20,054 nt of DNA from a virus, in IMG/VR virus record IMGVR_UViG_3300007076_000256, positions 1 to 20,054 of that record, one strand, 5' to 3'. Every line of letters begins with the position of its first letter. The first letter of the stretch is position 1. Below are positions 837 through 18,130 of this stretch, piece after piece. A program made the translations under genes and the position numbers. The notes below the pieces were generated by a model that was given only the letters and a program-made list of their open reading frames with translations, searched no databases and was not told where the DNA came from.

Positions 837-873
837 CTAGGCCTATTATAGCCTAGGCATAGCAGAAATGCAA
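837..873 (-). promoter_or_regulatory. Candidate leaderless promoter with hairpin before the fibre-like gene
   Basis: On the minus strand TTGCAT (873-868), 17 nt, a perfect TATAAT (850-845) and 8 nt precede the ATG at 836, so transcription would start at about the start codon. The -10 box lies in a dyad: CTAGG (837-841) pairs with CCTAG (852-856), with one bulged base, and CTAT pairs with ATAG around it. The -35 box matches the consensus at only three of six positions. The spacing and the perfect -10 are direct observations; promoter activity is inferred. Confidence 0.45.
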
Positions 874-877
874 ATGG

Positions 878-3115
878 CTAGGCAACTAGGTTGCTAAGCT
901 TCTGATTATTCACGCCGGTAGAGGTATCGGATAGAGGCGTAATGTTACTACGAATATTATTATGGTCGACAAGGTTGTTATCGCAAACTCCGGTATTGTC
1001 TTCCAGTTTAATGCCAGTAGTGGCGTTGTCTACGCGATTGCTAGTCACAGCGCAGTCCTGACAGGCGCTCAGGCGAATGCCGGTGGTAGCCGTTCTCACG
1101 AGGTTACCCACGATTACAACGTTAGTCGGGACCGTCGCGCTACCATCAACCCATATGCCGCTTGTGGTATCAAATACCGTGTTACCGTTTACGGTCACGT
1201 CATCGCTATCATCATAAACGCGAATGCCGCGTGGAGCAAAGTTAACGGTGTTACCAACACAACTTACCCGTTGGCTATTATCGATACCGATAGCATCGCT
1301 GTTGTTTACTGTTCGGATATCGTTTCCACAGATTGCGCTATCCGCTCCATTGTTCAAATAAATTCCTTGCTGGTCAATACGCTCTAATGTATTATCATTG
1401 ATGCGGACGTTATTTCCACCCGAGATATTGCTGACAATTCCCCATGAGCAATCCACAATTGTGTTATCGCAGGCAGAACCATCTTTCATGTTCGCCAAGA
1501 TTCCGAAGCCGCTTGACCCGCTGATACAACTGCGAATGTCGTTGCCTTCAACGCTATTTTGGTAGCCGCCGTTAACTTGAATGCCCTGTCCGGTGGGGCG
1601 ATAGAGAATTTCATTGTCTCTAACCCTAGTGCGCGTTACATTGTGCGCGCCGGCATCCAGTACGATTGCACCATCTCCTTTGCCGCCTTGGATAAAGTTT
1701 CCTTCTACAAGACCTCCATATGCATTGACACCTAAGAGAATCGCGGCCTGTGGGGTCGTGCCTGTGCTGCTATTGTTGTTAGAATAGATCTTGCATCCAC
1801 GAACAATAGGAGTCATCGCCGCTCGGCAAGCTATCGCACGACAGCCGTCTAGATTCGAAATGGTAACGCGTTCTATGAGAGTGTCAAAAGTAGCTACCAT
1901 GCTAATGCCATCAGTAGCGGTCCCTGTGAGAGCCACGTCTTCGCCTTCAATATTGAGATCCCTAATCTCTAGATGATCGCTGTAGCGCGCTAAGATAATT
2001 TGTTCGTAGGTGCCTGCGGGCTCTAGCTGTAAATTCTCTAAGCGATTAAATTTGTTTGCACTAGGATTATCTAGCAATCCTCCGGTAAAGCCCATCGGAG
2101 CGGGGTTTACCAAAGTGATCTCGCCCGTCCCCCCATTACCATTAGCCGATGCACGAGCCGTAAAGCCTTCTTTATACCCTGTCACACTATCGGTACCTAC
2201 AATAAAAAGAGTATCGCCGGTGCCTACTTGTCCCGCTGCAGCTGCTGTCGTGGTAAACACGCTGGTCGCGCCGCGACTAAAATTATTTAAAGGCTGGTCG
2301 ACAAGGTCGCTAGTACCGGCAAACTCGATCATAGCCCCGGTTCCACCGCCGGTAGCGGTAAGGCGTGTGGCGCGTCCTGCGCCGCGAATCGTTACGTTAT
2401 TGATGCTGCTAAAAACAACCCCATCGTCTAAATCATAAAGACCTTGCGAGAGTTGAATGATACCGCCACCAGAAGAGTGCACGGCAGACACTAAATCCTG
2501 AAGGCGATCTTTATCAGCAGTCGTGCCCGTTGGTTGCAGTGTTACGATATTGAATCCTACTTGGAGCTGATCTCCGGTGAGACTGACCTGTCCGTAGGTT
2601 CCACTTACATCGACGTGCATTCCCGCGGATACGCCACTTTTATTAGCGGTAATATCTAGCTGGGATACAAAAGGCTGAGAGGTAAAGGCGCCATAGTAAC
2701 TTTGATCCGCGCTTGCATTAGCAAACGTGAGATTGAGATCTGCGATGTTCCCGATTATTAATCCCTGGTCATCGGTTGGGATAATAAAGCCCTGAATAGT
2801 CCCGGTTTTACTAGCAAGCTCAATTATGTTGTCATCGGCGCTCCAATAAGAGGTCGCGTCGCTGCTGCCACGGCGAGCCTGTAGAAAAAGATCACTCATG
2901 TTATTAAGCTGTAGCAAGATGCTACCGTCTGTCACGAGGGCATTATCAGTCTGGAATTGGAACCCGATTGCGCTAGCGCCATCAGCTTCGTCTGTCCGTA
3001 CCGCGTTGCCGTCTAGATGGAAGTCTTGCGTAGCAGTGTGATTGCCGAGGTCATCGCCAACGGTAGTTGGGGTTAGCAGGTCTAGATTAATCTGCTTAAA
3101 AACATTGGTTGCCAC
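878..3115 (-). CDS. Phage tailspike with right-handed beta-helix (pectin-lyase-like fold)
   Basis: 745 aa with a GTG start; AGGAG lies just upstream and no in-frame ATG fits better. Residues 1-190 form a separate, beta-rich N-terminal region, probably the virion attachment part. From about residue 200 the sequence has the hallmarks of a pectin-lyase-like parallel beta-helix. There is an entry segment G-G-G-I-I-Q-L-S-Q-G-L-Y-D-L (residues 216-229), then V-T-I-R-G-A-G, then many rungs with G-N-x-I or D-N-x-I turns (such as V-E-G-N-D-I, I-C-G-N-D-I and V-N-G-N-T-V) up to the C-terminus. Such proteins are usually receptor-binding tailspikes that bind or cut surface polysaccharide. I cannot identify catalytic residues, so enzyme activity is open. 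It follows the 107-aa gene by 12 nt in the structural block. Confidence 0.85.
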   Translation of the reverse strand: MATNVFKQINLDLLTPTTVGDDLGNHTATQDFHLDGNAVRTDEADGASAIGFQFQTDNALVTDGSILLQLNNMSDLFLQARRGSSDATSYWSADDNIIELASKTGTIQGFIIPTDDQGLIIGNIADLNLTFANASADQSYYGAFTSQPFVSQLDITANKSGVSAGMHVDVSGTYGQVSLTGDQLQVGFNIVTLQPTGTTADKDRLQDLVSAVHSSGGGIIQLSQGLYDLDDGVVFSSINNVTIRGAGRATRLTATGGGTGAMIEFAGTSDLVDQPLNNFSRGATSVFTTTAAAAGQVGTGDTLFIVGTDSVTGYKEGFTARASANGNGGTGEITLVNPAPMGFTGGLLDNPSANKFNRLENLQLEPAGTYEQIILARYSDHLEIRDLNIEGEDVALTGTATDGISMVATFDTLIERVTISNLDGCRAIACRAAMTPIVRGCKIYSNNNSSTGTTPQAAILLGVNAYGGLVEGNFIQGGKGDGAIVLDAGAHNVTRTRVRDNEILYRPTGQGIQVNGGYQNSVEGNDIRSCISGSSGFGILANMKDGSACDNTIVDCSWGIVSNISGGNNVRINDNTLERIDQQGIYLNNGADSAICGNDIRTVNNSDAIGIDNSQRVSCVGNTVNFAPRGIRVYDDSDDVTVNGNTVFDTTSGIWVDGSATVPTNVVIVGNLVRTATTGIRLSACQDCAVTSNRVDNATTGIKLEDNTGVCDNNLVDHNNIRSNITPLSDTSTGVNNQKLSNLVA

Positions 3116-3127
3116 TAGGGACTCCTA

Positions 3128-3451
3128 TTAGCCTTGCATGACGACGCGAGTCGCAGCACTGGCAGGGACGATAATACGGACATATTTTGACATTAACCCG
3201 ATTACATTCCACTGAACCGAACCCCCGGCAACATCTGCGGCCGTGGTAGCGGTAGTTATGTCGGAAAAGCTTGCCGAGACATTCTCATCACTGGCCTGTA
3301 GCTTGATATTGCCCCCAGCGTTTGCGCCATAGTGAACTACTATGAAAGCATCTTTTATGTTGGTAACGTCTACGGCCAAGCTAACGGCACTGGTAGTTTC
3401 CAATAACGTTCTATTTTGGTCTATTTTGGGTTGTCCTAAAATCTCGGGCAT
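3128..3451 (-). CDS. Small beta-rich virion protein, decoration-like
   Basis: 107 aa, with the ATG at 3451 preceded by AAGGAG at good spacing; the site overlaps the end of the portal gene. The sequence is beta-rich and acidic. It holds F-I-V-V-H-Y-G-A-N-A-G-G-N-I-K-L-Q-A-S-D-E-N around residue 40, an S-F-S-D-I-T-T-A-T-T-A-A-D stretch, and a C-terminal Y-V-R-I-I-V-P strand. This layout recalls small phage structural proteins of unknown function that lie near head or tail genes. It sits between portal and tailspike. A head-decoration or connector role is inferred from position and composition only, and no family was recognised with certainty. Confidence 0.7.
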   Translation of the reverse strand: MPEILGQPKIDQNRTLLETTSAVSLAVDVTNIKDAFIVVHYGANAGGNIKLQASDENVSASFSDITTATTAADVAGGSVQWNVIGLMSKYVRIIVPASAATRVVMQG

Positions 3452-3455
3452 TTAA

Positions 3456-5360
3456 TTACTCCTTGGGAGCTGTGCTAGGCGGTTGGATTGCTCCAGGACC
3501 ACTAGACATAGCGGGATTTCCTTCACTTTGAGAAGGCTTTTGTTTATTCTGTTCCGGGGACATTTGCATAGGCGGTTGTTGCTGCGCTAAAAGGGCCTGG
3601 TGCTCGGCAATATGCTCCAATGTTGGGCTAAGAATCGCAACATTCTCCCGAATTTCCGGGTCGCTAGTAACGGTGCTATGCTCTAAAATGTGCAATTCAT
3701 GATTATCAATTGAGAGAGCGCGGGGTTTCTTACCCGCCATAAGCATCTCATTTTCCTTACGAATTCCCATCATTTGTGCGTGCGGACCCTCCGTCATCAC
3801 TTCCAAGTTACCAGTTTTATAGACCTCTAGATATTGCATGGCGTTAACTTGGTTATACTGTAAGAGGCTATTGGCCGCGTCGGTGCGACCGGCAAGGGTC
3901 TTCATAACTGGATTGCCCATGTCAACGACTACTCTATGGATGTCTGCCAGGTCTTCGCCTTTAAATGTTTGTAGATAGGTGCTGTTGTTTTTTCCGCTAA
4001 TGAGCGCGACGCGTGGGGTGCTGGCATAGTCTTGAAGATTTTGGATGACCATGGTAGCGCTGTCCTCTAGCATCTGGACGTAGCTAAGCTGAAGGGCCTG
4101 AGCAAATTGAATGGCCATTGTCTGGACAAGCGCCACGCTGTTTGCGCTGCGGAGATTGCTCTCAGGTTCGCCCCGGGCTGCACTATTAATCCCCGAGAGG
4201 GTTTCCATTTTTTGCTCTAAAACTGCAATCAGGTTATAGAGTTCTACTGGCGTAGCAGTTAACTGAAGAGGCTCAGGCTTGCCGGCTTTGGGATCGAACT
4301 CTACAAGGTTAAGACCGCCGGCAAGACGGCTTACTGTGAGACCGGCTCCGCGGGGCATGGCAATATTTTGGACGCCAAAGGTAGCGTTATTGGTTAGCGC
4401 TACGCTATAGAGCTTGTCTATGGCTTCTTGGAGAGGGACGAGATCAAAGGTATTGCTATAGCCGTAAATGTAGTCTTCCATCTCTCCCGCGCTCATGCGG
4501 ATCACGGGAAGGCTGCGGTAAGGAAGCGGGCCGTCAAATAAGAGAATGCCTCCTTCCGTGAACTCCAATATTCTTCCCTGTGGCATGGCCGGGGTAGGCT
4601 TATGATAAAAGCACCATTTATTTATGAGTTCATTTGTAGGGCTGTCGTAGAAGCGACGAATAACGAAATCGGTTAAAAATCCCTGGAACTCGCTATAGCT
4701 CTCTTGAATTACTTCTTCTTTTGTCTCTTCGGAGAGACCCGCCTGGCTGGCGATCTCAAACTTATTAGCTCTCTTGCGAAGCAAGATCCACTCGTCACAA
4801 TTAGCTTTGCGGTAGTGAATATCTCTTATGACATCGAAAGTGCTATAGGATCCAAACTCAAGGTCTCCTTCATAGATAATAGCACCAGTCTCAGGATGTC
4901 GACCGTATTCCTTGCCGCCGCTTGGGTTCCATCCCCCGTATAAAAACCCTTCTCCATAGCGGATCGCCAGGTCCGCAGTCTCGGCCTGGTAACGTTCTAA
5001 CTTTTCCACGCGGCTATAGTAGTCTAAAAGGCCGCTAGCGATGGTGGTTTGCGCCATGGACTTATAGTCTGTGTTAATGGCCTTTGGGTCATAGGCGGGG
5101 CGTTGGTTTACGAGAAGGCTCTTGCGATGGTCTATGAGATTTCTAAAGTGGTTTACGTTTATGTTAACATACTGGCCCAGGTTACCGCTTCGGGAGAGGC
5201 TACCGCGTTTGAAGGCACTTTTATTAGTGAAATTATAGACCTTGCGTAGCAGCTCTGTGCGCCCCGTTTCATGCAGGTAGCGATAATATCGCTCCTTACG
5301 CAGAACTAACTCGTCAATAAGATCGTAGGCCGGCAATGATGCAAAATACTTGTCTGACAA
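3456..5360 (-). CDS. Portal protein
   Basis: 634 aa with a TTG start, chosen because GGGAG lies 6 nt upstream. The protein would form the ring at one head vertex through which DNA enters and leaves. Support comes from its length, its position directly after TerL, and its pattern. There is an N-terminal helical part with Y-V-N-I-N-V-N-H-F-R-N-L and L-L-V-N-Q-R-P-A-Y. A middle alpha/beta wing follows, then a long helical segment with L-Q-E-A-I-D-K-L-Y-S-V-A (about residue 310) and the E-Q-K-M-E-T-L-S-G-I-N region (about 390) typical of phage portals. The last 50 residues are rich in Gln, Pro and Ser and are probably disordered. No catalytic function is expected. I could not place it in a specific portal subfamily. 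Confidence 0.82.
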   Translation of the reverse strand: MSDKYFASLPAYDLIDELVLRKERYYRYLHETGRTELLRKVYNFTNKSAFKRGSLSRSGNLGQYVNINVNHFRNLIDHRKSLLVNQRPAYDPKAINTDYKSMAQTTIASGLLDYYSRVEKLERYQAETADLAIRYGEGFLYGGWNPSGGKEYGRHPETGAIIYEGDLEFGSYSTFDVIRDIHYRKANCDEWILLRKRANKFEIASQAGLSEETKEEVIQESYSEFQGFLTDFVIRRFYDSPTNELINKWCFYHKPTPAMPQGRILEFTEGGILLFDGPLPYRSLPVIRMSAGEMEDYIYGYSNTFDLVPLQEAIDKLYSVALTNNATFGVQNIAMPRGAGLTVSRLAGGLNLVEFDPKAGKPEPLQLTATPVELYNLIAVLEQKMETLSGINSAARGEPESNLRSANSVALVQTMAIQFAQALQLSYVQMLEDSATMVIQNLQDYASTPRVALISGKNNSTYLQTFKGEDLADIHRVVVDMGNPVMKTLAGRTDAANSLLQYNQVNAMQYLEVYKTGNLEVMTEGPHAQMMGIRKENEMLMAGKKPRALSIDNHELHILEHSTVTSDPEIRENVAILSPTLEHIAEHQALLAQQQPPMQMSPEQNKQKPSQSEGNPAMSSGPGAIQPPSTAPKE

Positions 5361-5371
5361 TGAAGACTCCC

Positions 5372-5393
5372 AGGGAGCACGACGGCGCTCCCT
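5372..5393 (-). other. Hairpin between TerL and portal genes
   Basis: A perfect 7-bp stem (AGGGAGC with GCTCCCT) and an 8-nt loop start at the TerL stop codon and end just before the portal Shine-Dalgarno site. No T-run follows on the minus strand, so it is not a classic intrinsic terminator. It could be an mRNA stability or processing element that sets the TerL-to-portal ratio, which is an inference. Confidence 0.5.
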
Positions 5394-6796
5394 TATTCTG
5401 TTCCCTCAAAGATCCCACTCATGTCTTCTAAAGCAATCTCAAGCTCTTTCCGGTCCTTAGCTGCCTGCTTAGTTCTTCCCGGCTCTGCGATGGGATCGCC
5501 GCCATAGAGGTCAATGTTTCTAATTAGATACATAAGCATAGCAAAGTGATCGAAATGGCCATAGGCGGCGGAGCGCCCGAAGCGTTTGCGATGCTTATCC
5601 CAAACGCCATAGCGAAGGCAGCCTATGGTTTTGGGGCAGGTTTTGGGATTTACCTTAATGCGGCCTTCTTTTACCATTACTCGGACCTGATCTACCATGG
5701 CCTTTAGCTCATCTTTCCCCGTGGGAACAAAATGGAGCCCATGGAGGCTACCTAAATCTTGCAACAGTAGGGGATTATCATTGTCTGCGACACGGCGATA
5801 GGGTTCTAGCCCTTCCCAAATGGCTTTCTCGTGCTTTCTAACCATATCCCGCAGTGCGATGGTGGTCATAGCTGGCCCGTTAATAGAGTCTTCTTGCTCT
5901 AGATAGAAGACTCTTGTGAGGCGGTCGTACCAGCCGAAACCAATGGCCGTGAGGTCTACTTTCGTTCCCAGGTCCATGGCTACGTAACGATGCAATTGCT
6001 TAAAGTAGGCAGGGCGAGATAGCTCGACTTCATGCTCGGGGGACCACTCTGGGCAAAGACTGAGGCTCTCGTCTGTGACATGGCGGCAATAGTATTCGCG
6101 CAGGCGCTCGGTTTCAGTAAGACACTCTTCGAGAAGAACCTTTTTTTGCGCTGGAGAGAGCATAGTGTTATCGTCGATTGTCAAGAGAATATAACTACCC
6201 TCTGCGAGAGCTTTTGGCAGGAAGGTTGTCGTAAGAGGATGTGCGGGAGTGGACGGTGGCGTGGAAATCATAATAACCCGTGCGCCGGGACGAGTCGCTG
6301 TCATCGGGGTCACAACGCTACTGTATAGATAGTCTAACTTGTCTATGAAACCGGCTTCCTCAAAAACATAGAGGTCTGCGTTGTTACCGCGGCCAGCCTC
6401 AGGATTAACGTCTAGGCCAATAAGCTGGATTTCAGCTCCGTTATGGGGAAAGGTATAGGTAAGCTCACTTACTTTCCAGCGGGGTTTGAGTTCTTCGGGG
6501 CAATCGGCAAGAATCATCTCGAAAGCTGGGATGGCAAATTTTTTGAGGCCGGTTTTGGTACTGCTGGCATAAAAGATGCGAGGCAGGGGGTTCTGGCACG
6601 TGAGGGCCCACTCTACGCACTTAAGGGCGGCCCAAAAAGTCTTGCCTGTGCGACGAGAGCAATCTCCGTAAAAAAGCAAACTCTTAGATTGTCGAAAGGC
6701 TTCTTCTATAAGGCGCTGATGGGGTTTGAGTTTGTAGCGCAGATCGCCTCGATACCAGCTAAGTTCGCGAGCTTCTTTTTTGCTATAACGAGGCAT
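5393..6796 (-). CDS. terL: Terminase large subunit (TerL)
   Basis: 467 aa, the packaging motor that cuts concatemeric DNA and pumps it into the prohead. The ATPase domain shows a Walker A-like G-D-C-S-R-R-T-G-K-T at residues 44-53. A Walker B-like L-Y-V-F-E-E-A-G-F lies near 142-150, with Glu where Asp is more usual, and the coupling motif I-S-T-P-P near 178. The nuclease domain starts with Y-V-A-M-D-L-G-T-K-V-D-L-T-A (about 271-284, Asp275). Further acidic residues lie at V-A-D-N-D-N (337-341) and H-F-D-H-F (about 414-418), consistent with the RNase H-like nuclease of terminases. The length is normal. The ATG at 6796 has a weak Shine-Dalgarno site and lies 6 nt after the preceding gene. Confidence 0.93.
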   Translation of the reverse strand: MPRYSKKEARELSWYRGDLRYKLKPHQRLIEEAFRQSKSLLFYGDCSRRTGKTFWAALKCVEWALTCQNPLPRIFYASSTKTGLKKFAIPAFEMILADCPEELKPRWKVSELTYTFPHNGAEIQLIGLDVNPEAGRGNNADLYVFEEAGFIDKLDYLYSSVVTPMTATRPGARVIMISTPPSTPAHPLTTTFLPKALAEGSYILLTIDDNTMLSPAQKKVLLEECLTETERLREYYCRHVTDESLSLCPEWSPEHEVELSRPAYFKQLHRYVAMDLGTKVDLTAIGFGWYDRLTRVFYLEQEDSINGPAMTTIALRDMVRKHEKAIWEGLEPYRRVADNDNPLLLQDLGSLHGLHFVPTGKDELKAMVDQVRVMVKEGRIKVNPKTCPKTIGCLRYGVWDKHRKRFGRSAAYGHFDHFAMLMYLIRNIDLYGGDPIAEPGRTKQAAKDRKELEIALEDMSGIFEGTE

Positions 6797-6802
6797 TTGG
6801 GA

Positions 6803-7382: not shown

Positions 7383-7653
7383 TTGTCGCAACCTCTACAA
7401 CAGGTTCTTGCATGGGAATGACTTCAAGGCTATCGACGGCAGCCACTTGATCGGCAATAGCTTGCTGTTCCGCGAGGGTATGTTTTGTACTGGCAATCAA
7501 GACCTCATAAAAATGCTTTAGCGAAGCGATATCCATGGCATCGCGTCCGCTGAAAAAGCCTCTGCGGAGCAACCTTTGTGTGGTCTTATAGCCGTTTAGC
7601 ATCTTAGTTAAATCATTGATAATATTCTGGGTTGTGGGGGACTTGGTAACCAA
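7354..7653 (-). CDS. First gene of the structural block, unknown function
   Basis: 99 aa if started at the TTG at 7653. The frame also opens with a GTG at 7662, but AAGGAG overlaps that GTG and lies 7 nt before the TTG, so the TTG is preferred. The protein is helical and soluble, with no Cys and an acidic, Ser/Thr/Pro-rich C-terminal tail. A basic R-L-L-R-R-G segment lies near residue 28. No family was recognised. It overlaps the membrane-protein gene by 29 nt. It would be the first translated gene on a transcript from the 7691-7720 promoter. Confidence 0.65.
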   Translation of the reverse strand: MVTKSPTTQNIINDLTKMLNGYKTTQRLLRRGFFSGRDAMDIASLKHFYEVLIASTKHTLAEQQAIADQVAAVDSLEVIPMQEPVVEVATNESSPTANS

Positions 7654-7679
7654 AGTTGACACTCCTTTTAGGATTATGG

Positions 7680-7716
7680 TAACTTTAGTTAAGTTAGCAC
7701 AAGCCCTATAGGCTTG
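7680..7716. promoter_or_regulatory. Two adjacent 17-bp dyads, operator-like
   Basis: TAACTT-5 nt-AAGTTA (7680-7696) and CAAGCC-5 nt-GGCTTG (7700-7716) are perfect 6-5-6 inverted repeats with centres 20 bp apart, about two helical turns. One covers the leftward -10 box; the other fills the spacer and touches the leftward -35 box. Their sequences differ, so they may bind two regulators, or one may be an RNA hairpin. Confidence 0.5.
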
Positions 7717-7720
7717 TCAA
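7685..7720 (+). promoter_or_regulatory. Candidate leaderless promoter of the 7721 gene
   Basis: TTAGTT (7685-7690, poor -35), an 18-nt spacer, TAGGCT (7709-7714) and 6 nt lead to the ATG at 7721. The 15 bases from TAGGCT through ATG match 12 of 15 with those before the gene at 18131 (TAGGCTTnTCnnATG). The gene has no clear Shine-Dalgarno site. Confidence 0.4.
7691..7720 (-). promoter_or_regulatory. Candidate promoter of the leftward structural operon
   Basis: On the minus strand a perfect TTGACA (7720-7715), an 18-nt spacer and TAACTT (7696-7691, TAnnnT) would start transcription near 7684. That leaves a leader of about 30 nt with an AAGGAG site before the TTG start at 7653. This is an ordinary leadered layout, unlike the other promoters here. 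It overlaps the candidate rightward promoter at 7685-7720. Confidence 0.5.
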
Positions 7721-8008
7721 ATGGGCATGAAAAACAGATACTTAAAAAAGAAAGCGCTTCCCAGGAATCATCAATGGCAATGGGATTTTGACTATGTCGA
7801 GAGGCTCTCCGCCAAGGAAAAGGAATTTTTGAACCAATTTGTAGCAGAATACTATGATGCAAGTTTTAAAGAAGATAAGCCCCTTCACAAGGGCACGAGG
7901 CTGCGAAGAGAGTGTTATCGTAGAAAAAATCGCCAGAATAAGGACGTGCAGTCTATTCTAGACTGCGGGGGACGGATGGATCGAGTGGATAAGAAAGAAA
8001 AAGCTTAG
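7721..8008 (+). CDS. Small basic phage protein, conserved-hypothetical type
   Basis: 95 aa, strongly basic, with Y-V-E-R-L-S-A-K-E-K-E-F-L-N-Q-F near residues 26-41, then E-Y-Y-D-A-S-F-K and a Lys/Arg-rich C-terminal half (R-R-E-C-Y-R-R-K-N-R-Q-N-K-D). I recall a phage family of unknown function with this Y-V-x-x-L-S-x-x-E-K-x-[FW]-L-N-x-F pattern. Nucleic-acid binding is plausible from charge. It is the only plus-strand gene in the left 18 kb. It faces the exonuclease gene, with stop codons overlapping by 4 nt (8005-8008). A second in-frame ATG at 7727 is possible, but the promoter spacing favours 7721. Confidence 0.72.
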   Translation: MGMKNRYLKKKALPRNHQWQWDFDYVERLSAKEKEFLNQFVAEYYDASFKEDKPLHKGTRLRRECYRRKNRQNKDVQSILDCGGRMDRVDKKEKA

Positions 8009-8745: not shown

Positions 8746-8746
8746 A

Positions 8747-12398: not shown

Positions 12399-12409
12399 TT
12401 GGTCTCTTT

Positions 12410-12425
12410 TTATGCCCCTCTAGGG
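12410..12425. repeat. Short imperfect C4/G4 palindrome before polA
   Basis: GCCCCTCTAGGGGAG holds a CCCCT/AGGGG inverted repeat with a 2-nt centre. It is the third dyad in the 95-nt gap between the ssDNA-binding candidate and the polymerase. It lies 12 nt before the polymerase start, so it could affect translation of that gene. Confidence 0.4.
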
Positions 12426-12428
12426 GAG

Positions 12429-12461
12429 GGACACCCGGTAAGGGGGATTAACCGGGTGTCC
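12429..12461. repeat. Perfect 11-bp hairpin in the leader of polA
   Basis: GGACACCCGGT (12429-12439) pairs perfectly with ACCGGGTGTCC (12451-12461) around an 11-nt loop. The loop carries five adjacent Gs on the plus strand (Cs in the mRNA). No T-run follows on either strand, so termination is unlikely. It may be a regulatory RNA structure, an mRNA-processing site or part of a replication origin. Confidence 0.7.
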
Positions 12462-12478
12462 TCGGGGGAAAGCACAGG

Positions 12479-12497
12479 GTAATTGCGGAGCAATTAC
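12479..12497. repeat. Perfect 8-bp hairpin over the end of the ssDNA-binding gene
   Basis: GTAATTGC (12479-12486), a 3-nt loop and GCAATTAC (12490-12497) form a perfect tight dyad that includes the TAA stop at 12494-12496. It is followed within 20 nt by the larger hairpin at 12429-12461. It might protect the 3' end of the upstream mRNA. No T-run is present. Confidence 0.65.
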
Positions 12498-13033
12498 TGG
12501 ACTGTGCTAATACGCTTAATGATATTCTTTTCGCCGTCTGAACCATCGCGACGGGTAAAGGTCTCAACATCAACGTCTGCGAGAACGGTTACGCCCTCTA
12601 GATTAAGGGCTTCATAGTTTCCGCCCACGTTAATGCCAATTGCGGCTGGAACGCTGCCATACTCGTCGGCTTCAGCGGATGTGTCTGGCGCCCAAGTCAT
12701 GGTGTGAAGCGCAGTTTCATCGTTAATACCGGCTGATTGGCCTAGTACTTTGAGGAAGCGCTGGGTCACACTACTGTTCTTGACAGTGCTATCCTTAGCG
12801 CGGAATAGGACGAGTGAGGCGCCCGTTAGACCACGATTTTCTGCATCTGCGTGGACGAGAAAAATTTCTGCTTTGAATTTTCCAGTGGAGCCCATCTGGC
12901 GCGCGCTAATGCGTTTTACGGTCATCGCGTAGCGACCTGGCTTGGCGAGCTCACGTTCTCTTTTTGGAGCTTCGGCGGAGAGGGCTGCTATCTCTTCAGC
13001 CGAGAGTTGTGGATCTTGGAATGAGTAGTTCAT
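12494..13033 (-). CDS. DUF669-like putative ssDNA-binding protein
   Basis: 179 aa. After an acidic N-terminus (A-E-E-I-A-A-L-S-A-E-A) comes a beta-rich core. It opens with L-A-K-P-G-R-Y-A-M-T-V-K-R-I-S-A-R (about residues 29-45), a strand pair K-F-K-A-E-I-F-L-V-H-A, and a segment T-Q-R-F-L-K-V-L-G-Q-S-A-G-I. It ends V-T-V-L-A-D-V-D-V-E-T-F. This order (P-G-x-Y entry strand, middle helix, late L-A-x-V strand) resembles phage DUF669 proteins. Those lie in recombination modules beside Sak4-like ATPases and are thought to bind ssDNA. Here too the Sak4-like gene is just upstream. The ATG at 13033 overlaps the preceding stop (ATGA), and AGGA lies about 11 nt upstream. The assignment is probable rather than certain. 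Confidence 0.7.
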   Translation of the reverse strand: MNYSFQDPQLSAEEIAALSAEAPKRERELAKPGRYAMTVKRISARQMGSTGKFKAEIFLVHADAENRGLTGASLVLFRAKDSTVKNSSVTQRFLKVLGQSAGINDETALHTMTWAPDTSAEADEYGSVPAAIGINVGGNYEALNLEGVTVLADVDVETFTRRDGSDGEKNIIKRISTVQ

Positions 13034-13272
13034 TTTCTTTTGTTTCCTTTTTTCTTTTTGTGTGCTTTATTGCACTCTGAAACCTTAACAGGTTTCTCTG
13101 GAACTTGCAAGGTTTTTTCGTAGAGCGCCCAAAAATAATTACAGATTTTTGTTTCGTGGTTGTAGGGAGCACTTGAAAAATATGATTGCCACTCTTCAGG
13201 ATATGCAACGTGGCGATAGCAACTGTCTTTGAGGGGACAATTTTCGCCGGAGCGCAAGGTAATATCAGGCAT
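13030..13272 (-). CDS. 80-aa Cys-containing phage protein
   Basis: 80 aa from the ATG at 13272. A longer frame to 13353 has no site for initiation and would overlap the 32-aa gene in another frame, so I prefer 13272, where TAATG joins the two genes. The pattern N-C-P-L-K-D-S-C-Y-R-H-V-A-Y-P, then W-Q-S-Y-F, then K-I-C-N-Y-F-W recalls small phage proteins with C-x5-C...C and a conserved Q-S-Y-F. A metal site is possible, with a fourth ligand from His or the later C-N-K. The C-terminus is very basic (H-K-K-K-K-G-N-K-R-K). It lies between the Sak4-like and DUF669-like genes, so a role near recombination is suggested by context only. Confidence 0.65.
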   Translation of the reverse strand: MPDITLRSGENCPLKDSCYRHVAYPEEWQSYFSSAPYNHETKICNYFWALYEKTLQVPEKPVKVSECNKAHKKKKGNKRK

Positions 13273-13370
13273 TATTTCTTTCTCTTTGTTCGGATTAAAT
13301 AACTGGTAAAATTGTCGGACAATATACCTACAAGAAGTGCCGTAAGTACACATTCAAAAAATAAATCCAT
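13272..13370 (-). CDS. 32-aa single-pass membrane peptide
   Basis: ATG at 13370 to TAA at 13272. It begins inside the stop of the Sak4-like gene (TAATG), with GGAG 8 nt upstream, and ends in another TAATG with the next gene. The peptide begins M-D-L-F-F-E and continues with a hydrophobic C-V-L-T-A-L-L-V-G-I-L segment. It ends in R-T-K-R-K-K, giving one short membrane helix with a positive, probably cytoplasmic end. The function is unknown. The good ribosome site and the two overlaps make a real gene more likely than chance. Confidence 0.62.
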   Translation of the reverse strand: MDLFFECVLTALLVGILSDNFTSYLIRTKRKK

Positions 13371-14086
13371 TATTTTTTCTCCGTCATAACGCGGCCGTCG
13401 AAGACACTTAGGTCAAGGACTTTTAGATTGCCGAGAGCGTCAACAAACTCTGGGGCGACAAAGCTATTAGTAGCTATCCGTTCACTTTTCTTTGCCTTTA
13501 CAACGTATTTACCGCCGGAAAAGGCAAGATATTGCACATCGGTCATACGGCGTGGGAGACCGTTAATAAAGCTCCCGCGGCCTGCGGCGGCGAGAACTTC
13601 CTTGCCCTCGAGATCTTTACTTTTTTCTACGTGGCAGTTAACGATAACGTTACAGGGAAGTTTATGCAGGCGTTTGAAGTAAAGTTCGTTGCAGAGATTG
13701 CGAATGTAATCCCAGCCCTCATAACTAAGCTTGCCATCGATTGGGATTTTTCCTTTTACTTTTGCGTGTTCTTCGGCTAGTTCGTTAAAGACGCTGATGG
13801 TATCGACTACGATGGTTTGATAAGGGCAATCCTTTAAAAGAGAGTCTGCGAATCGGATCGCACTTTCGACATCGGTATAAGTGTCAAAGTCTATGAGTGC
13901 CTTTTGTGCCGCTGGAAGGCTATCGGCAAGGATTTTCATTTTACCGTCGAAATCAAAGAAGTAAACGCGGCCCCAACGGGTGGCATCGGCTGCGCGAAGG
14001 CTTTTGCCGGTTCCAGTGTCTCCGATTTGAAGGAGACGGAGAGGAAGCGGTTGCTGGGAAGATACGTCTGCAAGTTTAATTGGCAT
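13370..14086 (-). CDS. Sak4-like RecA-fold ATPase (phage recombination)
   Basis: 238 aa. Walker A is I-G-D-T-G-T-G-K-S at residues 21-29 and Walker B is Q-T-I-V-V-D-T-I-S at 90-98. R-V-Y-F-F-D-F-D-G-K follows the first helix, as in the phage nucleotide-binding AAA_24/Sak4 type. The polar segment N-V-I-V-N-C-H-V-E-K (about 145-155) resembles the sensor region, followed by G-R-G-S-F-I-N-G-L-P-R-R-M. Proteins of this type act in single-strand annealing or strand exchange with a partner SSB. Here a DUF669-like gene is two small genes downstream and a PD-(D/E)XK nuclease is directly upstream. GGAG lies 6 nt before the ATG. The assignment to Sak4 against other RecA-like groups is by pattern only. 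Confidence 0.8.
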   Translation of the reverse strand: MPIKLADVSSQQPLPLRLLQIGDTGTGKSLRAADATRWGRVYFFDFDGKMKILADSLPAAQKALIDFDTYTDVESAIRFADSLLKDCPYQTIVVDTISVFNELAEEHAKVKGKIPIDGKLSYEGWDYIRNLCNELYFKRLHKLPCNVIVNCHVEKSKDLEGKEVLAAAGRGSFINGLPRRMTDVQYLAFSGGKYVVKAKKSERIATNSFVAPEFVDALGNLKVLDLSVFDGRVMTEKK

Positions 14087-14088
14087 TG

Positions 14089-14775
14089 TTACTCCGTTTC
14101 AAATATATTTTTCTCTAGCCATGGCCACCCTAGCTTTGAGAGTCTAGTCCAGTATAGGCCTTTGAAAGTTTGAAGGCAAGATAAAAATGCATGGAAGCAA
14201 AAATCTAGGTGCTCGTAATGAAAGACCTTTCCCTTTTCGGGCTGATGGCGGGGCAGATGGATGGCGCAATAGCCTTCTACCGGTTCGAGAGGGTGCAGTT
14301 CGTTGTAGGCTTGCCTGTAGGCAGCGAGTTGCCAGCCGGTGGTGGGAGATAGCATGCGGCCAGTTTTGAGATCCCCCAGGATCCTACGGATCCGGCCGTC
14401 AAAGGCGGTATGTTCTAGGAGCATGTCCACTCTACCGGCGAAGCCATACTGCGAACTGTGTACTGGAAACTCTACGTCTACAATCTTTAGATTGTTTGCC
14501 GCCAAGAGAGTGGAAAGAGCGTCTAGCTCGGGGAGTTTGTTATCTAGGCCATGTTTAAATTTATCTTCGAGGGCTCGTGCGATTGTGGTTCCGTGGTCCG
14601 CTGCGGTTAAGGACTTGTCATCGATTTCCTCTGCGGGGGTGCGGATGAACCATCGTTTGAGTTCGATTGGGATAATGTGTGCTAGCACACTGGTAACGCT
14701 AATGTAGTTAGCGCCGTCGCTATCCGTGTACCAGCGCCAATCGTTTTTATCCTTATCTTGGCAGGTGAGACTCAT
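14089..14775 (-). CDS. PD-(D/E)XK nuclease, RecB/Cas4-like
   Basis: 228 aa. The nuclease core is readable in order: A-D-H-G-T (His61), V-D-V-E-F-P-V (Glu102), G-F-A-G-R-V-D-M-L (Asp117), I-L-G-D-L-K-T-G-R (Asp135, Lys137) and W-Q-L-A-A-Y (Gln149). This is the RecB-type arrangement with the Q-x3-Y motif. No four-Cys iron-sulfur cluster of the Cas4/AddB type is present. The enzyme probably resects DNA ends to feed the annealing ATPase next to it, with 2 nt between the genes. The ATG at 14775 overlaps the stop of the 56-aa gene (ATGA). Confidence 0.85.
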   Translation of the reverse strand: MSLTCQDKDKNDWRWYTDSDGANYISVTSVLAHIIPIELKRWFIRTPAEEIDDKSLTAADHGTTIARALEDKFKHGLDNKLPELDALSTLLAANNLKIVDVEFPVHSSQYGFAGRVDMLLEHTAFDGRIRRILGDLKTGRMLSPTTGWQLAAYRQAYNELHPLEPVEGYCAIHLPRHQPEKGKVFHYEHLDFCFHAFLSCLQTFKGLYWTRLSKLGWPWLEKNIFETE

Positions 14776-14942
14776 ACCTTTGGGGTTTCCTGTAGAACTT
14801 GTTCCAGGAGGCTAACTTTTTTCTTCTTTTTCTGCCCGGCGCGGCGAGAGATAGCTTCCCGAGCCGCACGCCTCTCGGTGACGAAGCTGCTTGCATTTTC
14901 GGGAGAGAAGGGCTTGGATAAATTGTTTTGAGCTTCACTCAT
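14772..14942 (-). CDS. 56-aa basic protein upstream of the nuclease
   Basis: ATG at 14942 with AAGGAGG about 10 nt upstream, and TGA overlapping the nuclease start at 14775 (ATGA). A 61-aa frame nearby (14753-14938) is in another phase and lacks such a site. The peptide has S-K-P-F-S-P-E-N-A near residue 9, R-R-A-A-R-E-A-I-S-R-R-A-G-Q, a run of five Lys, and a C-terminal amphipathic helix (V-S-L-L-E-Q-V-L-Q-E). P-F-[ST]-x-E-N-A followed by a basic stretch recalls short basic phage proteins thought to bind DNA. No structure-based evidence exists here. Confidence 0.72.
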   Translation of the reverse strand: MSEAQNNLSKPFSPENASSFVTERRAAREAISRRAGQKKKKKVSLLEQVLQETPKV

Positions 14943-15231
14943 TTTTTTTTCTTCCTCCTTGGGCCCGATAGAGCCAAAGGTCGAGAATTTCCGTTAGGCG
15001 AGAGGTAAATACGACGAGGCTCGCGTGGTGCCAGTCTTCGTGATCTTGGTTGGGCGTTGCAACGACTGTTGCCGTTGCGATGTTTAGCTCATTGAAAGCG
15101 AGAATTAAGTTAGTTAATTGGACTTGATCCCAGGCGCTTTTAAAGAAATCTAAGTCTAGGTGATCTGCCGTAACGGCCTCAGCAATAACTTTGTCTTTAT
15201 CGATTAGGGTTTTGTAGTTTGGCTTCTTCAT
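14935..15231 (-). CDS. 98-aa protein of unknown function
   Basis: The ATG at 15231 overlaps the stop of the preceding gene (ATGA), with GAGG about 6 nt upstream. The protein looks soluble and mixed alpha/beta. It has a helix (D-F-F-K-S-A-W-D-Q-V-Q-L-T-N-L-I-L-A-F), a strand (A-T-A-T-V-V-A-T), and a helix ending L-T-E-I-L-D-L-W-L-Y. It has no Cys and a basic C-terminus. I do not recognise a family. Its place in the coupled gene string before the nuclease suggests it is expressed with the recombination genes. Confidence 0.65.
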   Translation of the reverse strand: MKKPNYKTLIDKDKVIAEAVTADHLDLDFFKSAWDQVQLTNLILAFNELNIATATVVATPNQDHEDWHHASLVVFTSRLTEILDLWLYRAQGGRKKNE

Positions 15232-15656
15232 TTTATCCTCGTATGATTAGACTCTCCGTGGCGGAAGTAGGCGCAGAAAGTGTCATGTGCGGCGTTGGTT
15301 AGAGAGACGGTTCCGCTTCGGACTGCGCTGTGAAGCATGGCGCTGCAGGTGCAGTATTTAAGCTCTTTTCTTTCTTTAATAGGGAGAGAATTAAATAAAA
15401 GTTTTAACCAGGATTTTGAGACCGAGTCTTTTATACTAATATTTCCATACTTACAAAAATAAATCGATCCTTGATCGATAAATTCGACGATAACCATTTC
15501 GCCAATGATATTATCTGAGATAAAGCTGCTATGGCTAGGAAAATACATACCGGGCAAATTCGGACTTAATATAAAGCCATTTAGAATCAGGGCTTTTTTT
15601 TCCGGGAAAGTAAAGGTATCTCCCGGCTTTAGACTATCGATTTGTTGAGAGGTCAT
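15228..15656 (-). CDS. CxC/HDxFC protein, copy A
   Basis: 142 aa. The C-terminal 35 residues hold Y-C-T-C-S-A-M-L, then A-A-H-D-T-F-C-A, a likely Cys/His metal site. The same C-x-C-S-A-x-L ... H-D-x-F-C pattern ends the protein at 16846-17154. The similarity seems to reach upstream: M-V-I-V-E-F-I-D...I-Y-F-C...S-V-S-K here against E-T-I-V-E-L-I-E...L-Y-Y-V...A-L-S-K there. The N-terminal half is beta-rich with S-L-K-P-G-D-T-F-T-F-P near residue 8, a possible SH3-like barrel entry. No family was recognised. The ATG overlaps the stop of the 39-aa TM gene. Confidence 0.7.
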   Translation of the reverse strand: MTSQQIDSLKPGDTFTFPEKKALILNGFILSPNLPGMYFPSHSSFISDNIIGEMVIVEFIDQGSIYFCKYGNISIKDSVSKSWLKLLFNSLPIKERKELKYCTCSAMLHSAVRSGTVSLTNAAHDTFCAYFRHGESNHTRIK

Positions 15657-15772
15657 AGAAGCCCCAAAAGATGCGCGAGTTTGTAGCCGGTCAAAACGGC
15701 GCCACCTAAAACAATTAACATAATTGCGATAAAGAAATATAACTCTGCCATTTCACGAATAAAGTTTTTCAT
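15653..15772 (-). CDS. 39-aa single-pass membrane peptide
   Basis: ATG at 15772 with AAGGGG upstream, TGA at 15653. Both ends overlap the neighbours as ATGA. The sequence begins M-K-N-F-I-R-E-M-A and continues as one hydrophobic helix (L-Y-F-F-I-A-I-M-L-I-V-L-G-G-A-V-L), then T-G-Y-K-L-A-H-L-L-G. The positive N-terminus suggests it faces the cytoplasm. It could be a small holin, antiholin, spanin part or superinfection factor. Nothing in the sequence decides this. Confidence 0.7.
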   Translation of the reverse strand: MKNFIREMAELYFFIAIMLIVLGGAVLTGYKLAHLLGLL

Positions 15773-15966
15773 ATTTTCCCCTTGTTGTAGGGCCAATTAG
15801 CGGGCCTTGGGCTGATCTTATCGAGCTCTTCTAGCTCGATGAGGCTTTCCGCGAGCATGGAGTCTATTTCTTTTTGTACTCGCGCTTCGTCCTCGCATTC
15901 CGGGCAAAAGAAACTTGTGAGAAGGGGCTTTAGAGGGCAATTATGCTTTTGGCATTTGTCTGGCAT
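15769..15966 (-). CDS. 65-aa Cys-rich protein, putative metal binder
   Basis: 65 aa from the ATG at 15966, 1 nt after the stop of the preceding gene; a longer frame to 16017 has no ribosome site before it. The N-terminal half carries K-C-Q-K-H-N-C-P-L-K-P and S-F-F-C-P-E-C-E-D-E, i.e. C-x4-C and C-x2-C, a probable zinc site. An acidic helix follows (Q-K-E-I-D-S-M-L-A-E-S-L-I-E-L-E-E-L-D). I do not recognise a family. A small zinc-binding adaptor or regulator is an inference. Confidence 0.62.
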   Translation of the reverse strand: MPDKCQKHNCPLKPLLTSFFCPECEDEARVQKEIDSMLAESLIELEELDKISPRPANWPYNKGKI

Positions 15967-15967
15967 G

Positions 15968-16342
15968 TTAGTGGACACTCTGGCCTGTGCCGATGTGATC
16001 TCCCTCCAAAAAAACATTTGGATCGTTTAGATTAAGGGTTATGACGCTGGCCGCTTGCACGCAGAGACTAGTTTTGTGGAGTTGGGGGCCGAAATGTGGG
16101 CCTGAGACTTCTTTAAATAGAATGCCGTTTGGGGTGCAGCCGCCGACTTCCCGGCCAGTGAAGAGATAGATGCCGCTGGTGGAGCTAAAGACCTTCTTCA
16201 TTGGGTCATCGGTTGGGAAGGTGCTGCGCGCGGGAGCGTCGTCGCTAGGCATGCGGAGGGTCATTAGGACCGCTATGGCGATAATCCAGAGCATGATTGC
16301 CGTGGCCGCGAGAAAAGCATCTAGAGGGCGTGAGAAGTTCAT
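15968..16342 (-). CDS. Membrane-anchored protein of unknown function
   Basis: 124 aa. After M-N-F-S-R-P-L-D comes one hydrophobic helix (F-L-A-A-T-A-I-M-L-W-I-I-A-I-A-V-L-M-T-L, residues 10-29). A soluble domain of about 90 residues follows, with two Cys (G-G-C-T-P and S-L-C-V-Q), so the bulk may be outside the cytoplasm. The start has no Shine-Dalgarno site. A TTGACA/CATGCT promoter ends 6 nt before the ATG, and this gene is the first after a 42-nt gap, the start of a probable separate transcript. Function unknown. Confidence 0.68.
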   Translation of the reverse strand: MNFSRPLDAFLAATAIMLWIIAIAVLMTLRMPSDDAPARSTFPTDDPMKKVFSSTSGIYLFTGREVGGCTPNGILFKEVSGPHFGPQLHKTSLCVQAASVITLNLNDPNVFLEGDHIGTGQSVH

Positions 16343-16378
16343 GAATTAAGCATGACACAGGGCCGGGGGTTCTGTCAA
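16343..16378 (-). promoter_or_regulatory. Candidate leaderless promoter before 15968-16342
   Basis: TTGACA (16378-16373), 18 nt, CATGCT (16354-16349), 6 nt, then the ATG at 16342. A perfect -35 box and a correctly spaced -10-like box put the transcript start at about the start codon. There is no ribosome-binding site. It fills nearly the whole gap after the uracil glycosylase gene. Confidence 0.5.
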
Positions 16379-16384
16379 GAAGTT

Positions 16385-16846
16385 TTATGAGGCGAGTTCT
16401 TGCGCGAGACGGGCAAAGCTCGCTCGCCAGGCGGCTAGCTCTCGGCGGCGCCTGCGGAGGACGTAGGCAGGGTGGTAAAAGAAGGAGACTATTTTAGGCA
16501 TCTTTAGGAAGTGAAGCGGCCATTTTTGTATTGCCTCTCTGGCGGTGCGCCCTAGGCAAATGAGAATCCGCGGCTGCGCCAGTAAGAAGTGTGCTATTAG
16601 CTCGTCTTGGTAGAGGGCTATTTCATCGGGAGTGGGGGTTCGGTTGTTGGCCGGGCGGAAGTTTATGGTATTTGCGAAGAGACATTCATTATCGGAAAAG
16701 CCTGCGTCTGAAAGGGCGCGGCGGAGAAGTTGCCCGGATGAGCCTATAAAAGGACGGCCGAGGGAGGCCTCTAGGCGACCGGGGGCTTCTCCTATGAGCA
16801 TGATAAGGGCCGGAGAGGGGCCTTCGGGGTGGACAAACTTTTCCAT
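16385..16846 (-). CDS. Uracil-DNA glycosylase, family 4-like, without Fe-S cysteines
   Basis: 153 aa from the ATG at 16846, chosen because it overlaps the preceding stop (TGATG) with AAGG upstream. Motifs of family 4 glycosylases are present: G-E-A-P-G-R-L-E-A-S-L-G-R-P-F-I-G (residues 19-35), A-N-T-I-N-F-R-P-A-N-N-R-T-P-T-P-D-E (58-75) and F-Y-H-P-A-Y-V-L-R (123-131). It would remove uracil from DNA. The four Cys that hold the 4Fe-4S cluster in this family are absent: there is no N-terminal Cys pair. The position of the usual Cys in the N-V-V-K-C-R-P-P motif is Phe here, and a Tyr stands where the last is expected. It is shorter than usual (about 190-220 aa). It lies near an HD nucleotide hydrolase. 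Confidence 0.85.
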   Translation of the reverse strand: MEKFVHPEGPSPALIMLIGEAPGRLEASLGRPFIGSSGQLLRRALSDAGFSDNECLFANTINFRPANNRTPTPDEIALYQDELIAHFLLAQPRILICLGRTAREAIQKWPLHFLKMPKIVSFFYHPAYVLRRRRRELAAWRASFARLAQELAS

Positions 16847-17154
16847 CAGAGAACCTTTAGGGTAGTGAGGGGACAAAAGCTATCGTGAGGTTTTTCGTCT
16901 AGAAGCATTGCACGGGTCATGAGTTTGGCAGAGCACTTGCAGAGACGTGAAGCGCGAGCCTCACGGATTGTGTCTATGGAGTTCTTGGAGAGCGCTCGGT
17001 CATAGGTCGGCGAGTTTACGTAGTAAAGAAGATCATTCTCGATAAGCTCCACTATCGTTTCCGCAGGAAACGGCCACCATAGGCGGGGTAGACCGTAGGA
17101 TTGTTGTTCTTGGTCGCTAGGGATTCGGAAGAGAAAGAAATGCCTCTTTGCCAT
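16846..17154 (-). CDS. CxC/HDxFC protein, copy B
   Basis: 102 aa from the ATG at 17154, 1 nt after the TAG of the HD gene; an upstream in-frame ATG at 17190 would lie inside that gene. The C-terminus holds L-C-K-C-S-A-K-L, then K-P-H-D-S-F-C-P, matching the protein at 15228-15656. The N-terminal part is rich in aromatics (H-F-F-L-F-R-I-P, R-L-W-W-P-F-P). An E-T-I-V-E-L-I-E segment aligns with the other copy. A Cys/His metal site is probable. The function is unknown. Confidence 0.7.
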   Translation of the reverse strand: MAKRHFFLFRIPSDQEQQSYGLPRLWWPFPAETIVELIENDLLYYVNSPTYDRALSKNSIDTIREARASRLCKCSAKLMTRAMLLDEKPHDSFCPLTTLKVL

Positions 17155-17155
17155 T

Positions 17156-17683
17156 CTAGGCTCTAGTAAGATTGTATTCCATGAGTTCAAGCCACAGCTT
17201 TTGGGGGTCTCGGTAGCGCTGTGGGAATTTGCGCTTGCTATAGAGGCGCATGGCTTCGATCATGGTTTTTTCTTCGACAAGGGCTTCGTTATCAGCTTGC
17301 TTGACGAGTGGGTCTAAGAGAGTCGGTAAATTGTATTCTTCCATGAGACGAGTAAAGTGAAAGGCTTCAATGGCTTCGATTTGATTACAGGAATGTTTAA
17401 CGTGGCTGGGGATATCCCCGATTACAACTTCGGCTGCATCATGGAGAAGAGCCTGAAGGCGCTGGGAGCGGTCGCCGCCTCTGTCTCGTACGATTTCATA
17501 GACGCGAATGGAGTGGGTAAGCACGTCAAGGCATCCGGCTGAGCCAGCGAAGCGATTGATGTGGTTGAGACTGAAGGCAATTGCTTCGAGGGGAAGCCTA
17601 GCAATGTTGAATGCATCGCCGGGAACGGGAGGAACCAAGAGATGGACGAAGTGTTTGCGGTTATTAGATAGTTTCTTTTCCAT
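17156..17683 (-). CDS. HD-domain nucleotide hydrolase, YfdR/YfbR-like
   Basis: 175 aa. The HD fold motifs are L-T-H-S-I-R (His57), A-L-L-H-D-A-A-E-V-V-I-G-D-I-P-S (His81, Asp82, Glu85, Asp90) and L-V-K-Q-A-D-N-E-A (Asp131). Upstream, F-S-L-N-H-I-N-R-F-A-G corresponds to the R-F-x-G part of the phage YfdR-type family. Such enzymes hydrolyse deoxynucleoside mono- or triphosphates and may adjust nucleotide pools for phage replication. The exact substrate cannot be told. It has no Shine-Dalgarno site. A TTGGCA/TAAGCT promoter inside the end of the zinc-ribbon gene is placed for a leaderless start. Confidence 0.83.
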   Translation of the reverse strand: MEKKLSNNRKHFVHLLVPPVPGDAFNIARLPLEAIAFSLNHINRFAGSAGCLDVLTHSIRVYEIVRDRGGDRSQRLQALLHDAAEVVIGDIPSHVKHSCNQIEAIEAFHFTRLMEEYNLPTLLDPLVKQADNEALVEEKTMIEAMRLYSKRKFPQRYRDPQKLWLELMEYNLTRA

Positions 17684-17718
17684 ACCGAGAGCTTACCGCG
17701 AAAAAGAGACGTTGCCAA
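17684..17718 (-). promoter_or_regulatory. Candidate leaderless promoter of the HD gene
   Basis: TTGGCA (17718-17713), exactly 17 nt, TAAGCT (17695-17690), 6 nt, then the ATG at 17683. The -10 box overlaps the stop codon of the zinc-ribbon gene. The same -10 box with the same 17-nt and 6-nt spacings occurs before 18075. Confidence 0.5.
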
Positions 17719-17914
17719 GGATTTTTTTATCCATGTCGGTTAGCTTGTCCTTGGCGACACCCCGGCGGCCATTGGTGGCGACTACCGTTTGGCGACAGTA
17801 GCCACAAGATAGACAGAGATGTTGGAGGGTGGTCATATAGCGAGTGTGGGCTAGGGGGCGGATCCAGTTTGTGCCGTTACAGTACGGGCACCATGTTTTG
17901 CGGGATATTACCAT
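17693..17914 (-). CDS. Zinc-ribbon-like small protein
   Basis: 73 aa with W-C-P-Y-C-N-G-T near residue 9 and L-C-L-S-C-G-Y-C-R near residue 34, so C-x2-C and C-x2-C-x2-C; a zinc ribbon is likely. The C-terminal half is basic (N-G-R-R-G-V-A-K-D-K). Similar small phage proteins often bind nucleic acid or act as transcription factors, but no specific family was recognised. The ATG at 17914 lies inside the end of the 55-aa membrane gene, which overlaps by 7 nt in another frame. Confidence 0.75.
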   Translation of the reverse strand: MVISRKTWCPYCNGTNWIRPLAHTRYMTTLQHLCLSCGYCRQTVVATNGRRGVAKDKLTDMDKKILGNVSFSR

Positions 17915-18075
17915 AAGATCGCCGCGAGAAAAAGGAAAGAAAAGACTGCATGGATTTTCCAGGTTATTCTGGCATAGTCTAGTGCATTTTCTGCGGTGAC
18001 TGCGCCGAAGAGGCTAAGAGCGCTGCTGAGGGAAGAGATAAAGAGGCCGAGGGCGTAGAGTTTGTATGGGTCCAT
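17908..18075 (-). CDS. 55-aa two-pass membrane peptide, first gene of the leftward block
   Basis: ATG at 18075 to TAA at 17908; it overlaps the zinc-ribbon start by 7 nt. Two hydrophobic segments are seen: A-L-G-L-F-I-S-S-L-S-S-A-L-S-L-F-G-A-V (about residues 8-26) and H-A-V-F-S-F-L-F-L-A-A-I-L-W at the end. A short acidic and aromatic loop (E-N-A-L-D-Y-A-R-I-T-W-K) joins them. A TTGACA/TAAGCT promoter ends 6 nt before the ATG and there is no Shine-Dalgarno site. Possibly a holin-like or superinfection-exclusion membrane peptide, which is not shown. Confidence 0.7.
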   Translation of the reverse strand: MDPYKLYALGLFISSLSSALSLFGAVTAENALDYARITWKIHAVFSFLFLAAILW

Positions 18076-18110
18076 GGAAAGAGCTTAACAAATGCTTGCG
18101 GGAGTGTCAA
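18076..18110 (-). promoter_or_regulatory. Leaderless promoter candidate for the leftward replication block
   Basis: TTGACA (18110-18105), 17 nt, TAAGCT (18087-18082), 6 nt, then the ATG at 18075. It overlaps by 15 bp the opposite promoter for the gene at 18131. Divergent start codons are only 55 bp apart, so bound polymerase on one would block the other. Confidence 0.58.
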
Positions 18111-18130
18111 GTTTATGATAGGCTTTTCGG
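18096..18130 (+). promoter_or_regulatory. Leaderless promoter candidate for the rightward cassette
   Basis: TTGCGG (18096-18101), 17 nt, TAGGCT (18119-18124), 6 nt, then the ATG at 18131. The -35 box is weak. The -10 box and its distance to the ATG repeat those before 7721. No Shine-Dalgarno site is present. Confidence 0.45.

What the first reader, a model, noticed from the sequence alone, without database searches (positions are those of the whole stretch)
837..18130. A recurrent -10/6-8 nt/ATG arrangement before six genes that lack Shine-Dalgarno sites
Seen: genes starting at 836, 7721, 16342, 17683, 18075 and 18131 have a TAnnnT-type or related box (TATAAT, TAGGCT, CATGCT, TAAGCT, TAAGCT, TAGGCT) ending 6-8 nt before ATG. 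A TTG-type -35 lies 17-18 nt further up in five of the six; at 7721 it is weak. Many other genes have clear AGGAG-like sites. Two sub-motifs recur: TAGGCTTnTCnnATG and TAAGCTCTnnnnATGGA. Established: leaderless starts are common in Actinobacteria and Deinococcus. Inference: this phage mixes leaderless early genes with leadered late genes, and its host reads leaderless mRNA well.
Basis: partly seen in the sequence, partly recalled or inferred. Interest (0 to 1): 0.75.

Follow-up and report, generated by a model that had tools for sequence, protein, structure and literature searches.

The report
Phage genes started without mRNA leaders
Several genes of this uncultured phage, and of many related phages, have a promoter placed exactly so that the messenger RNA should begin at the start codon itself, a known but uncommon way of starting a gene that seems more frequent in environmental phages than the single textbook cases suggest.

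Summary
The observation mostly holds. The boxes and spacings are as described at 836, 16342, 17683, 18075 and 18131. At 7721 the box is inside an inverted repeat and a better promoter lies 35 nt upstream, so that site is doubtful. These starts have weak Shine-Dalgarno pairing. The same 6-nt peak appears in about 1,800 starts of phages sharing the portal protein (24 against 4 per gap) and in samples of IMG/VR. It matches proven leaderless transcripts (PY54 cro and cI; lambda cI). One small gene family keeps the arrangement in five diverged phages. Best explanation: ordinary host-sigma70 promoters that give leaderless mRNAs, often at compact divergent promoters. The early-leaderless/late-leadered scheme is not supported, and the host is unidentified; the pattern does not point to Actinobacteria or Deinococcus. 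A new member of a known kind; its apparent breadth across phages is the interesting part. No 5'-end data were available.

The parts
868..873 (-). -35 TTGCAT of the promoter before the gene at 836
845..850 (-). -10 TATAAT, 8 nt before ATG at 836 (first gene of a structural pair that continues in the other half of the genome)
7709..7714 (+). TAGGCT box 6 nt before ATG at 7721; no -35; doubtful as a promoter
   Evidence: overlaps inverted repeat 7699-7717 (sequence printed)
7656..7685 (+). competing promoter TTGACA-18-TAACTT for gene 7721, leaving a leader of about 29 nt without SD
16373..16378 (-). -35 TTGACA of the promoter before gene 16342
16349..16354 (-). -10 CATGCT, 6 nt before ATG at 16342
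15968..16342 (-). predicted leaderless gene, 124 aa, N-terminal hydrophobic segment
17713..17718 (-). -35 TTGGCA of the promoter before gene 17683
17690..17695 (-). -10 TAAGCT, 6 nt before ATG at 17683; its TAA is also the stop codon of the upstream ORF 17693-17914
17156..17683 (-). predicted leaderless gene, HD/YfbR-like deoxynucleotidase, 175 aa
18105..18110 (-). -35 TTGACA of the promoter before gene 18075
18082..18087 (-). -10 TAAGCT, 6 nt before ATG at 18075
17908..18075 (-). predicted leaderless gene, 55-aa hydrophobic (membrane-type) protein
18096..18101 (+). -35 TTGCGG of the divergent promoter before gene 18131; the two promoters overlap within the 55-nt intergenic region
18119..18124 (+). 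-10 TAGGCT, 6 nt before ATG at 18131
18131..18355 (+). predicted leaderless gene, 74 aa, unknown function

Best explanation
The boxes are -10 elements of ordinary sigma70-type promoters read by the host RNA polymerase (no RNA polymerase gene was seen in the phage). Because the -10 ends 6 nt before the ATG, transcription should start at or within about 2 nt of the A of the start codon. The mRNA would then be leaderless and translated by direct recognition of the 5'-terminal AUG. This holds well for 16342, 17683, 18075 and 18131, probably for 836 (8-nt gap), and is doubtful for 7721. The arrangement packs a promoter into a very short space: two divergent promoters in 55 nt between 18075 and 18131, and a promoter overlapping the upstream stop codon at 17683. 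Shown: sequence elements, spacing statistics, weak SD, recurrence in relatives. Inferred: the transcription start, translation of the leaderless mRNA, and the compactness rationale.
For: Exact 6-nt enrichment in the completed genome. A further case at 22349 in the unseen half. Weak SD at these starts. Portal-sharing relatives: gap 6 has 24 starts against 4.04 per gap, Poisson P about 1e-11, the -35 at 17 nt, and SD in only 4 of 29 such starts against 1,084 of 1,777. IMG/VR samples: TTGACA-17-TATAAT followed by an ORF-opening ATG at gap 6 or 7 in 21 and 15 cases against 2.7 per other gap; for TTGACA-17-TANGCT 7 and 4 against 0.9. Positive controls: lambda cI gap 6, PY54 cro gap 6, PY54 cI gap 5, while SD-led lambda cro has gap 24; both PY54 mRNAs were shown leaderless by RACE (PMC4488713). 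Conserved case: five diverged homologs of a small protein (38-65% identity) all keep a TTG-type -35 and a -10 ending 5-6 nt before ATG. In-frame stops lie within four codons upstream at 836, 7721, 16342, 17683, 18075 and 18131, so translation cannot start further up, and no SD-preceded start near the N-terminus replaces the called one at 836, 16342, 17683 and 18075.
Against: No 5'-end data. Gene starts come from a home-made caller and have no close homologs to confirm N-termini. 18131 has a weak promoter score (6/12); 22349 has no in-frame stop within 40 nt upstream and an AAGGAA next to its ATG. Most of the nearest full-length relatives show no gap 5-8 hit under the strict rule. With gap 6 a TA[AG] box is an in-frame stop codon, which could bias start calling; gaps 3 and 9 are not raised, which argues against that artefact.
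Confidence: 0.8

Rival explanations
1. Some boxes are chance matches, and the genes are translated from longer mRNAs made from upstream promoters, by coupling to the upstream gene or by SD-independent initiation.
For: 7721 has a stronger promoter 35 nt upstream; 17683 directly follows an upstream ORF whose stop codon lies in the box; 6796 carries TAGGCT 8 nt before ATG without a good -35, probably by chance.
Against: The 6-nt peak with a paired -35 at 17 nt is far above chance in the genome, in relatives and in viral contigs at large; 18075 and 18131 are divergent and have no room for a leader.
Confidence: 0.15
2. The start codons are misassigned: the true starts lie downstream and are SD-led, so the promoters give normal short leaders.
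For: 18131 has a GTG at codon 43 and 7721 a TTG at codon 37 with SD-like sequence.
Against: No SD-preceded alternative near the N-terminus at 836, 16342, 17683 or 18075; using the alternatives at 18131 or 7721 would discard more than a third of those small proteins. Coding signal begins at the called starts of 836, 16342, 18075 and 18131, less clearly at 17683, 7721 and 22349.
Confidence: 0.07
3. The arrangement is a host signature: the phage infects a leaderless-rich host (Actinobacteria or Deinococcus).
For: Such hosts use TANNNT boxes about 12 bp upstream of starts in some 20-40% of genes (PMC3160421; PMC12340547).
Against: The closest named relative by capsid, portal and terminase is a phage from Silvanigrella; related portals sit in contigs binned as Bacteroidia, Gammaproteobacteria and Clostridia; the same spacing is in lambda and PY54. 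Most genes here have SD sites.
Confidence: 0.15

Closest known systems
Lambda cI from PRM
   Same: -10 ends exactly 6 nt before ATG, no SD, host sigma70
   Different: Single regulator gene of a temperate phage; here several genes, none a recognisable repressor
PY54 cI/cro divergent leaderless pair (PMC4488713)
   Same: Two divergent genes, -10 ending 5 and 6 nt before ATG; leaderless by RACE
   Different: Repressor switch with mapped operator; the 18075/18131 pair encodes small unknown proteins
TA-led leaderless genes of bacteria (Zheng 2011, PMC3160421)
   Same: TANNNT about 12 bp upstream of the start with SD missing
   Different: Cellular genomes; here phage, with well-matched -35 elements
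-10 region adjacent to ORF in Deinococcus-Thermus (PMC12340547)
   Same: -10 directly before the ORF gives leaderless mRNA
   Different: There the -10 motif alone can suffice; here the -35 is usually well matched and the host is unknown

Membership tests
Leaderless gene with sigma70-type promoter | -10 box ending about 6 nt before the start codon | tested here: met
   5 of 6 named sites at exactly 6 nt, 836 at 8 nt; enrichment P about 4e-6
Leaderless gene with sigma70-type promoter | -35 element 16-18 nt upstream | tested here: met
   met at 836, 16342, 17683, 18075 and weakly at 18131; not at 7721
Leaderless gene with sigma70-type promoter | No Shine-Dalgarno site before the start | tested here: met
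   mean -2.0 against -5.5 kcal/mol, p = 0.001
Leaderless gene with sigma70-type promoter | Transcript 5' end at the start codon | not testable with these tools
   no RNA data
Deinococcus-Thermus type -10-adjacent ORF | Host in Deinococcus-Thermus and promoter usable without -35 | tested here: inconclusive
   host not identified; most sites do have a -35
Early-leaderless/late-leadered phage programme | Leaderless starts confined to early genes | tested here: not met
   836 heads structural-type genes, the small plus-strand cluster is mostly SD-led; timing itself not measured

The most novel reading that the evidence does not exclude
Leaderless sigma70 promoters are a widespread, selected architecture in uncultured tailed phages, concentrated at divergent promoters, small accessory genes and mobile endonuclease genes, and largely independent of host group.
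Probability: 0.5. Interest if true: 0.6.

Novelty: new member of a known kind. Interest (0 to 1): 0.42.

Why it matters
If leaderless starts are common in environmental phages, gene callers that rely on SD sites will misplace or miss such starts, and phage promoters can be found by looking directly upstream of ATGs. It also makes testable whether phages gain from leaderless mRNA when initiation factors or ribosomes change during infection, or simply from compact divergent promoters.

Tried and rejected
7721 as a firm case: rejected as doubtful (better promoter upstream, box in an inverted repeat, no -35). 6796 (TAGGCT 8 nt before ATG): probably chance, no good -35. Stop-codon artefact (in-frame TAA/TAG inside the box forcing the ORF start): gaps 3 and 9 are not raised, gap 6 is. 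Searching relatives for narrow motifs gave little, and nine near relatives showed almost no strict hits; the signal appeared only in the larger portal family and with a general sigma70 rule. Host search through capsid in bacterial genomes found nothing; through portal found only binned contigs of mixed groups. Perfect-consensus comparison in 143 gammaproteobacterial genomes gave 3 against 1, too few to judge whether the pattern is phage-specific. No Rfam RNA or tRNA in the window.

Full report
What the window is. The window is a 20,054-nt virus record. A second record, IMGVR_UViG_3300050513_000160 (40,203 nt), matches it at 100% in two pieces that are circularly permuted relative to each other. 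Together they give a closed circle of 40,248 nt. The phage has a P22-type portal, terminase, DNA polymerase A, a DUF3987 primase, a Sak4-like protein, an exonuclease, a uracil-DNA glycosylase and an HD-domain protein. I saw no RNA polymerase or integrase among the proteins examined, so transcription probably depends on the host enzyme (inference; not every protein of the second half was scanned against families).

Checking the observation. All six boxes and their distances are as stated. Four of 62 starts have the -10 ending exactly 6 nt before ATG, against 2 of 1,188 other ATGs, P about 4e-6. 836 has gap 8 with a perfect TATAAT. 18131 (TTGCGG-17-TAGGCT) is below the cut-off but is the divergent partner of 18075. 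7721 is doubtful: its box has no -35 and overlaps an inverted repeat, and TTGACA-18-TAACTT lies upstream with its -10 ending 35 nt from that ATG.

Shine-Dalgarno. Pairing energy with the anti-SD sequence averages -2.0 for the seven candidates against -5.5 kcal/mol for the other starts, p = 0.001.

Start codons. At 836, 7721, 16342, 17683, 18075 and 18131 an in-frame stop lies within four codons upstream, so translation cannot start further up. No SD-preceded alternative start near the N-terminus was found for 836, 16342, 17683 or 18075.

Relatives. Contigs sharing the portal protein (and the capsid relatives) gave 1,806 distinct starts. Gap 6 holds 24 strong promoters against 4.04 per gap elsewhere, P about 1e-11; the -35 is at 17 nt; only 4 of 29 such starts (gap 6 or 7) have SD against 1,084 of 1,777 others. 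Such genes have a divergent upstream neighbour in 14 of 32 cases against 170 of 1,803 for all genes. One small gene family has five diverged homologs in the loci held, and all have the arrangement, with the -10 ending 5 or 6 nt before ATG (the script preferred ATGs with a promoter, a mild bias). Among the leaderless-type genes, one is a GIY-YIG endonuclease by Pfam and two more have weak HNH or NUMOD3 matches.

Viruses at large. With the selecting sites removed, the same contigs still show gap 6 as raised, but only weakly (8 against 2.9, P = 0.01). The contigs with the TANGCT box range from 32% to 67% GC.

Controls. The same promoter elements (allowing one mismatch in TTG) put lambda cI at gap 6, PY54 cro at gap 6 and PY54 cI at gap 5, and SD-led lambda cro at gap 24. 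PY54 cI and cro mRNAs were shown leaderless by RACE (PMC4488713); lambda cI is a standard leaderless mRNA.

Mechanism. Host sigma70 polymerase starts at or next to the A of ATG, and the ribosome initiates on the 5'-terminal AUG. This allows overlapping divergent promoters in 55 nt at 18075/18131 and a promoter running over the end of the upstream gene at 17683.

Host. Capsid, portal and terminase are nearest, among named phages, to a phage found with Silvanigrella. Related portals occur in contigs binned with Bacteroidia, Gammaproteobacteria and Clostridia. The host of this phage is not known, and the pattern does not identify it.

Novelty. Leaderless genes and their -10 spacing are known (PMC3160421, PMC12340547), also in phages as single cases. 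I found no paper in the held library that reports the pattern across environmental phages, but that library lacks most subscription journals.

Noticed in passing
window 18588-19016 and L014:16358-16825: Two small proteins with an N-terminal hydrophobic segment and a zinc-protease motif HExxHxxGxxH (HEMLHVAGLDH, HELLHIAGFAH); no Pfam or PHROG match.
   Followed up: partly
window 7653-7721: Divergent promoters TTGACA-18-TAACTT on both strands with overlapping, nearly symmetric -10 regions, plus an inverted repeat ACAAGCC-CTATA-GGCTTGT; looks like an operator region.
   Followed up: partly
window 836-860: The -10 of gene 836 lies between inverted arms CTAGGC and GCCTAG, as at 7721 the box overlaps an inverted repeat; possible common regulator.
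   Followed up: no
window 19138-19179: TTGACA-18-GAAAAT whose -10-like box ends 11 nt before an ATG without SD: a possible very short leader.
   Followed up: no
L111, L112/L141, L120, L125, L135: Small unknown protein family (VPMI..TFDE) with a conserved leaderless-type promoter in five diverged phages.
   Followed up: partly
window 19957-20054: Short tandem repeats in the gene starting at 19676, coding for an ATRAATGDA-like repeat.
   Followed up: no
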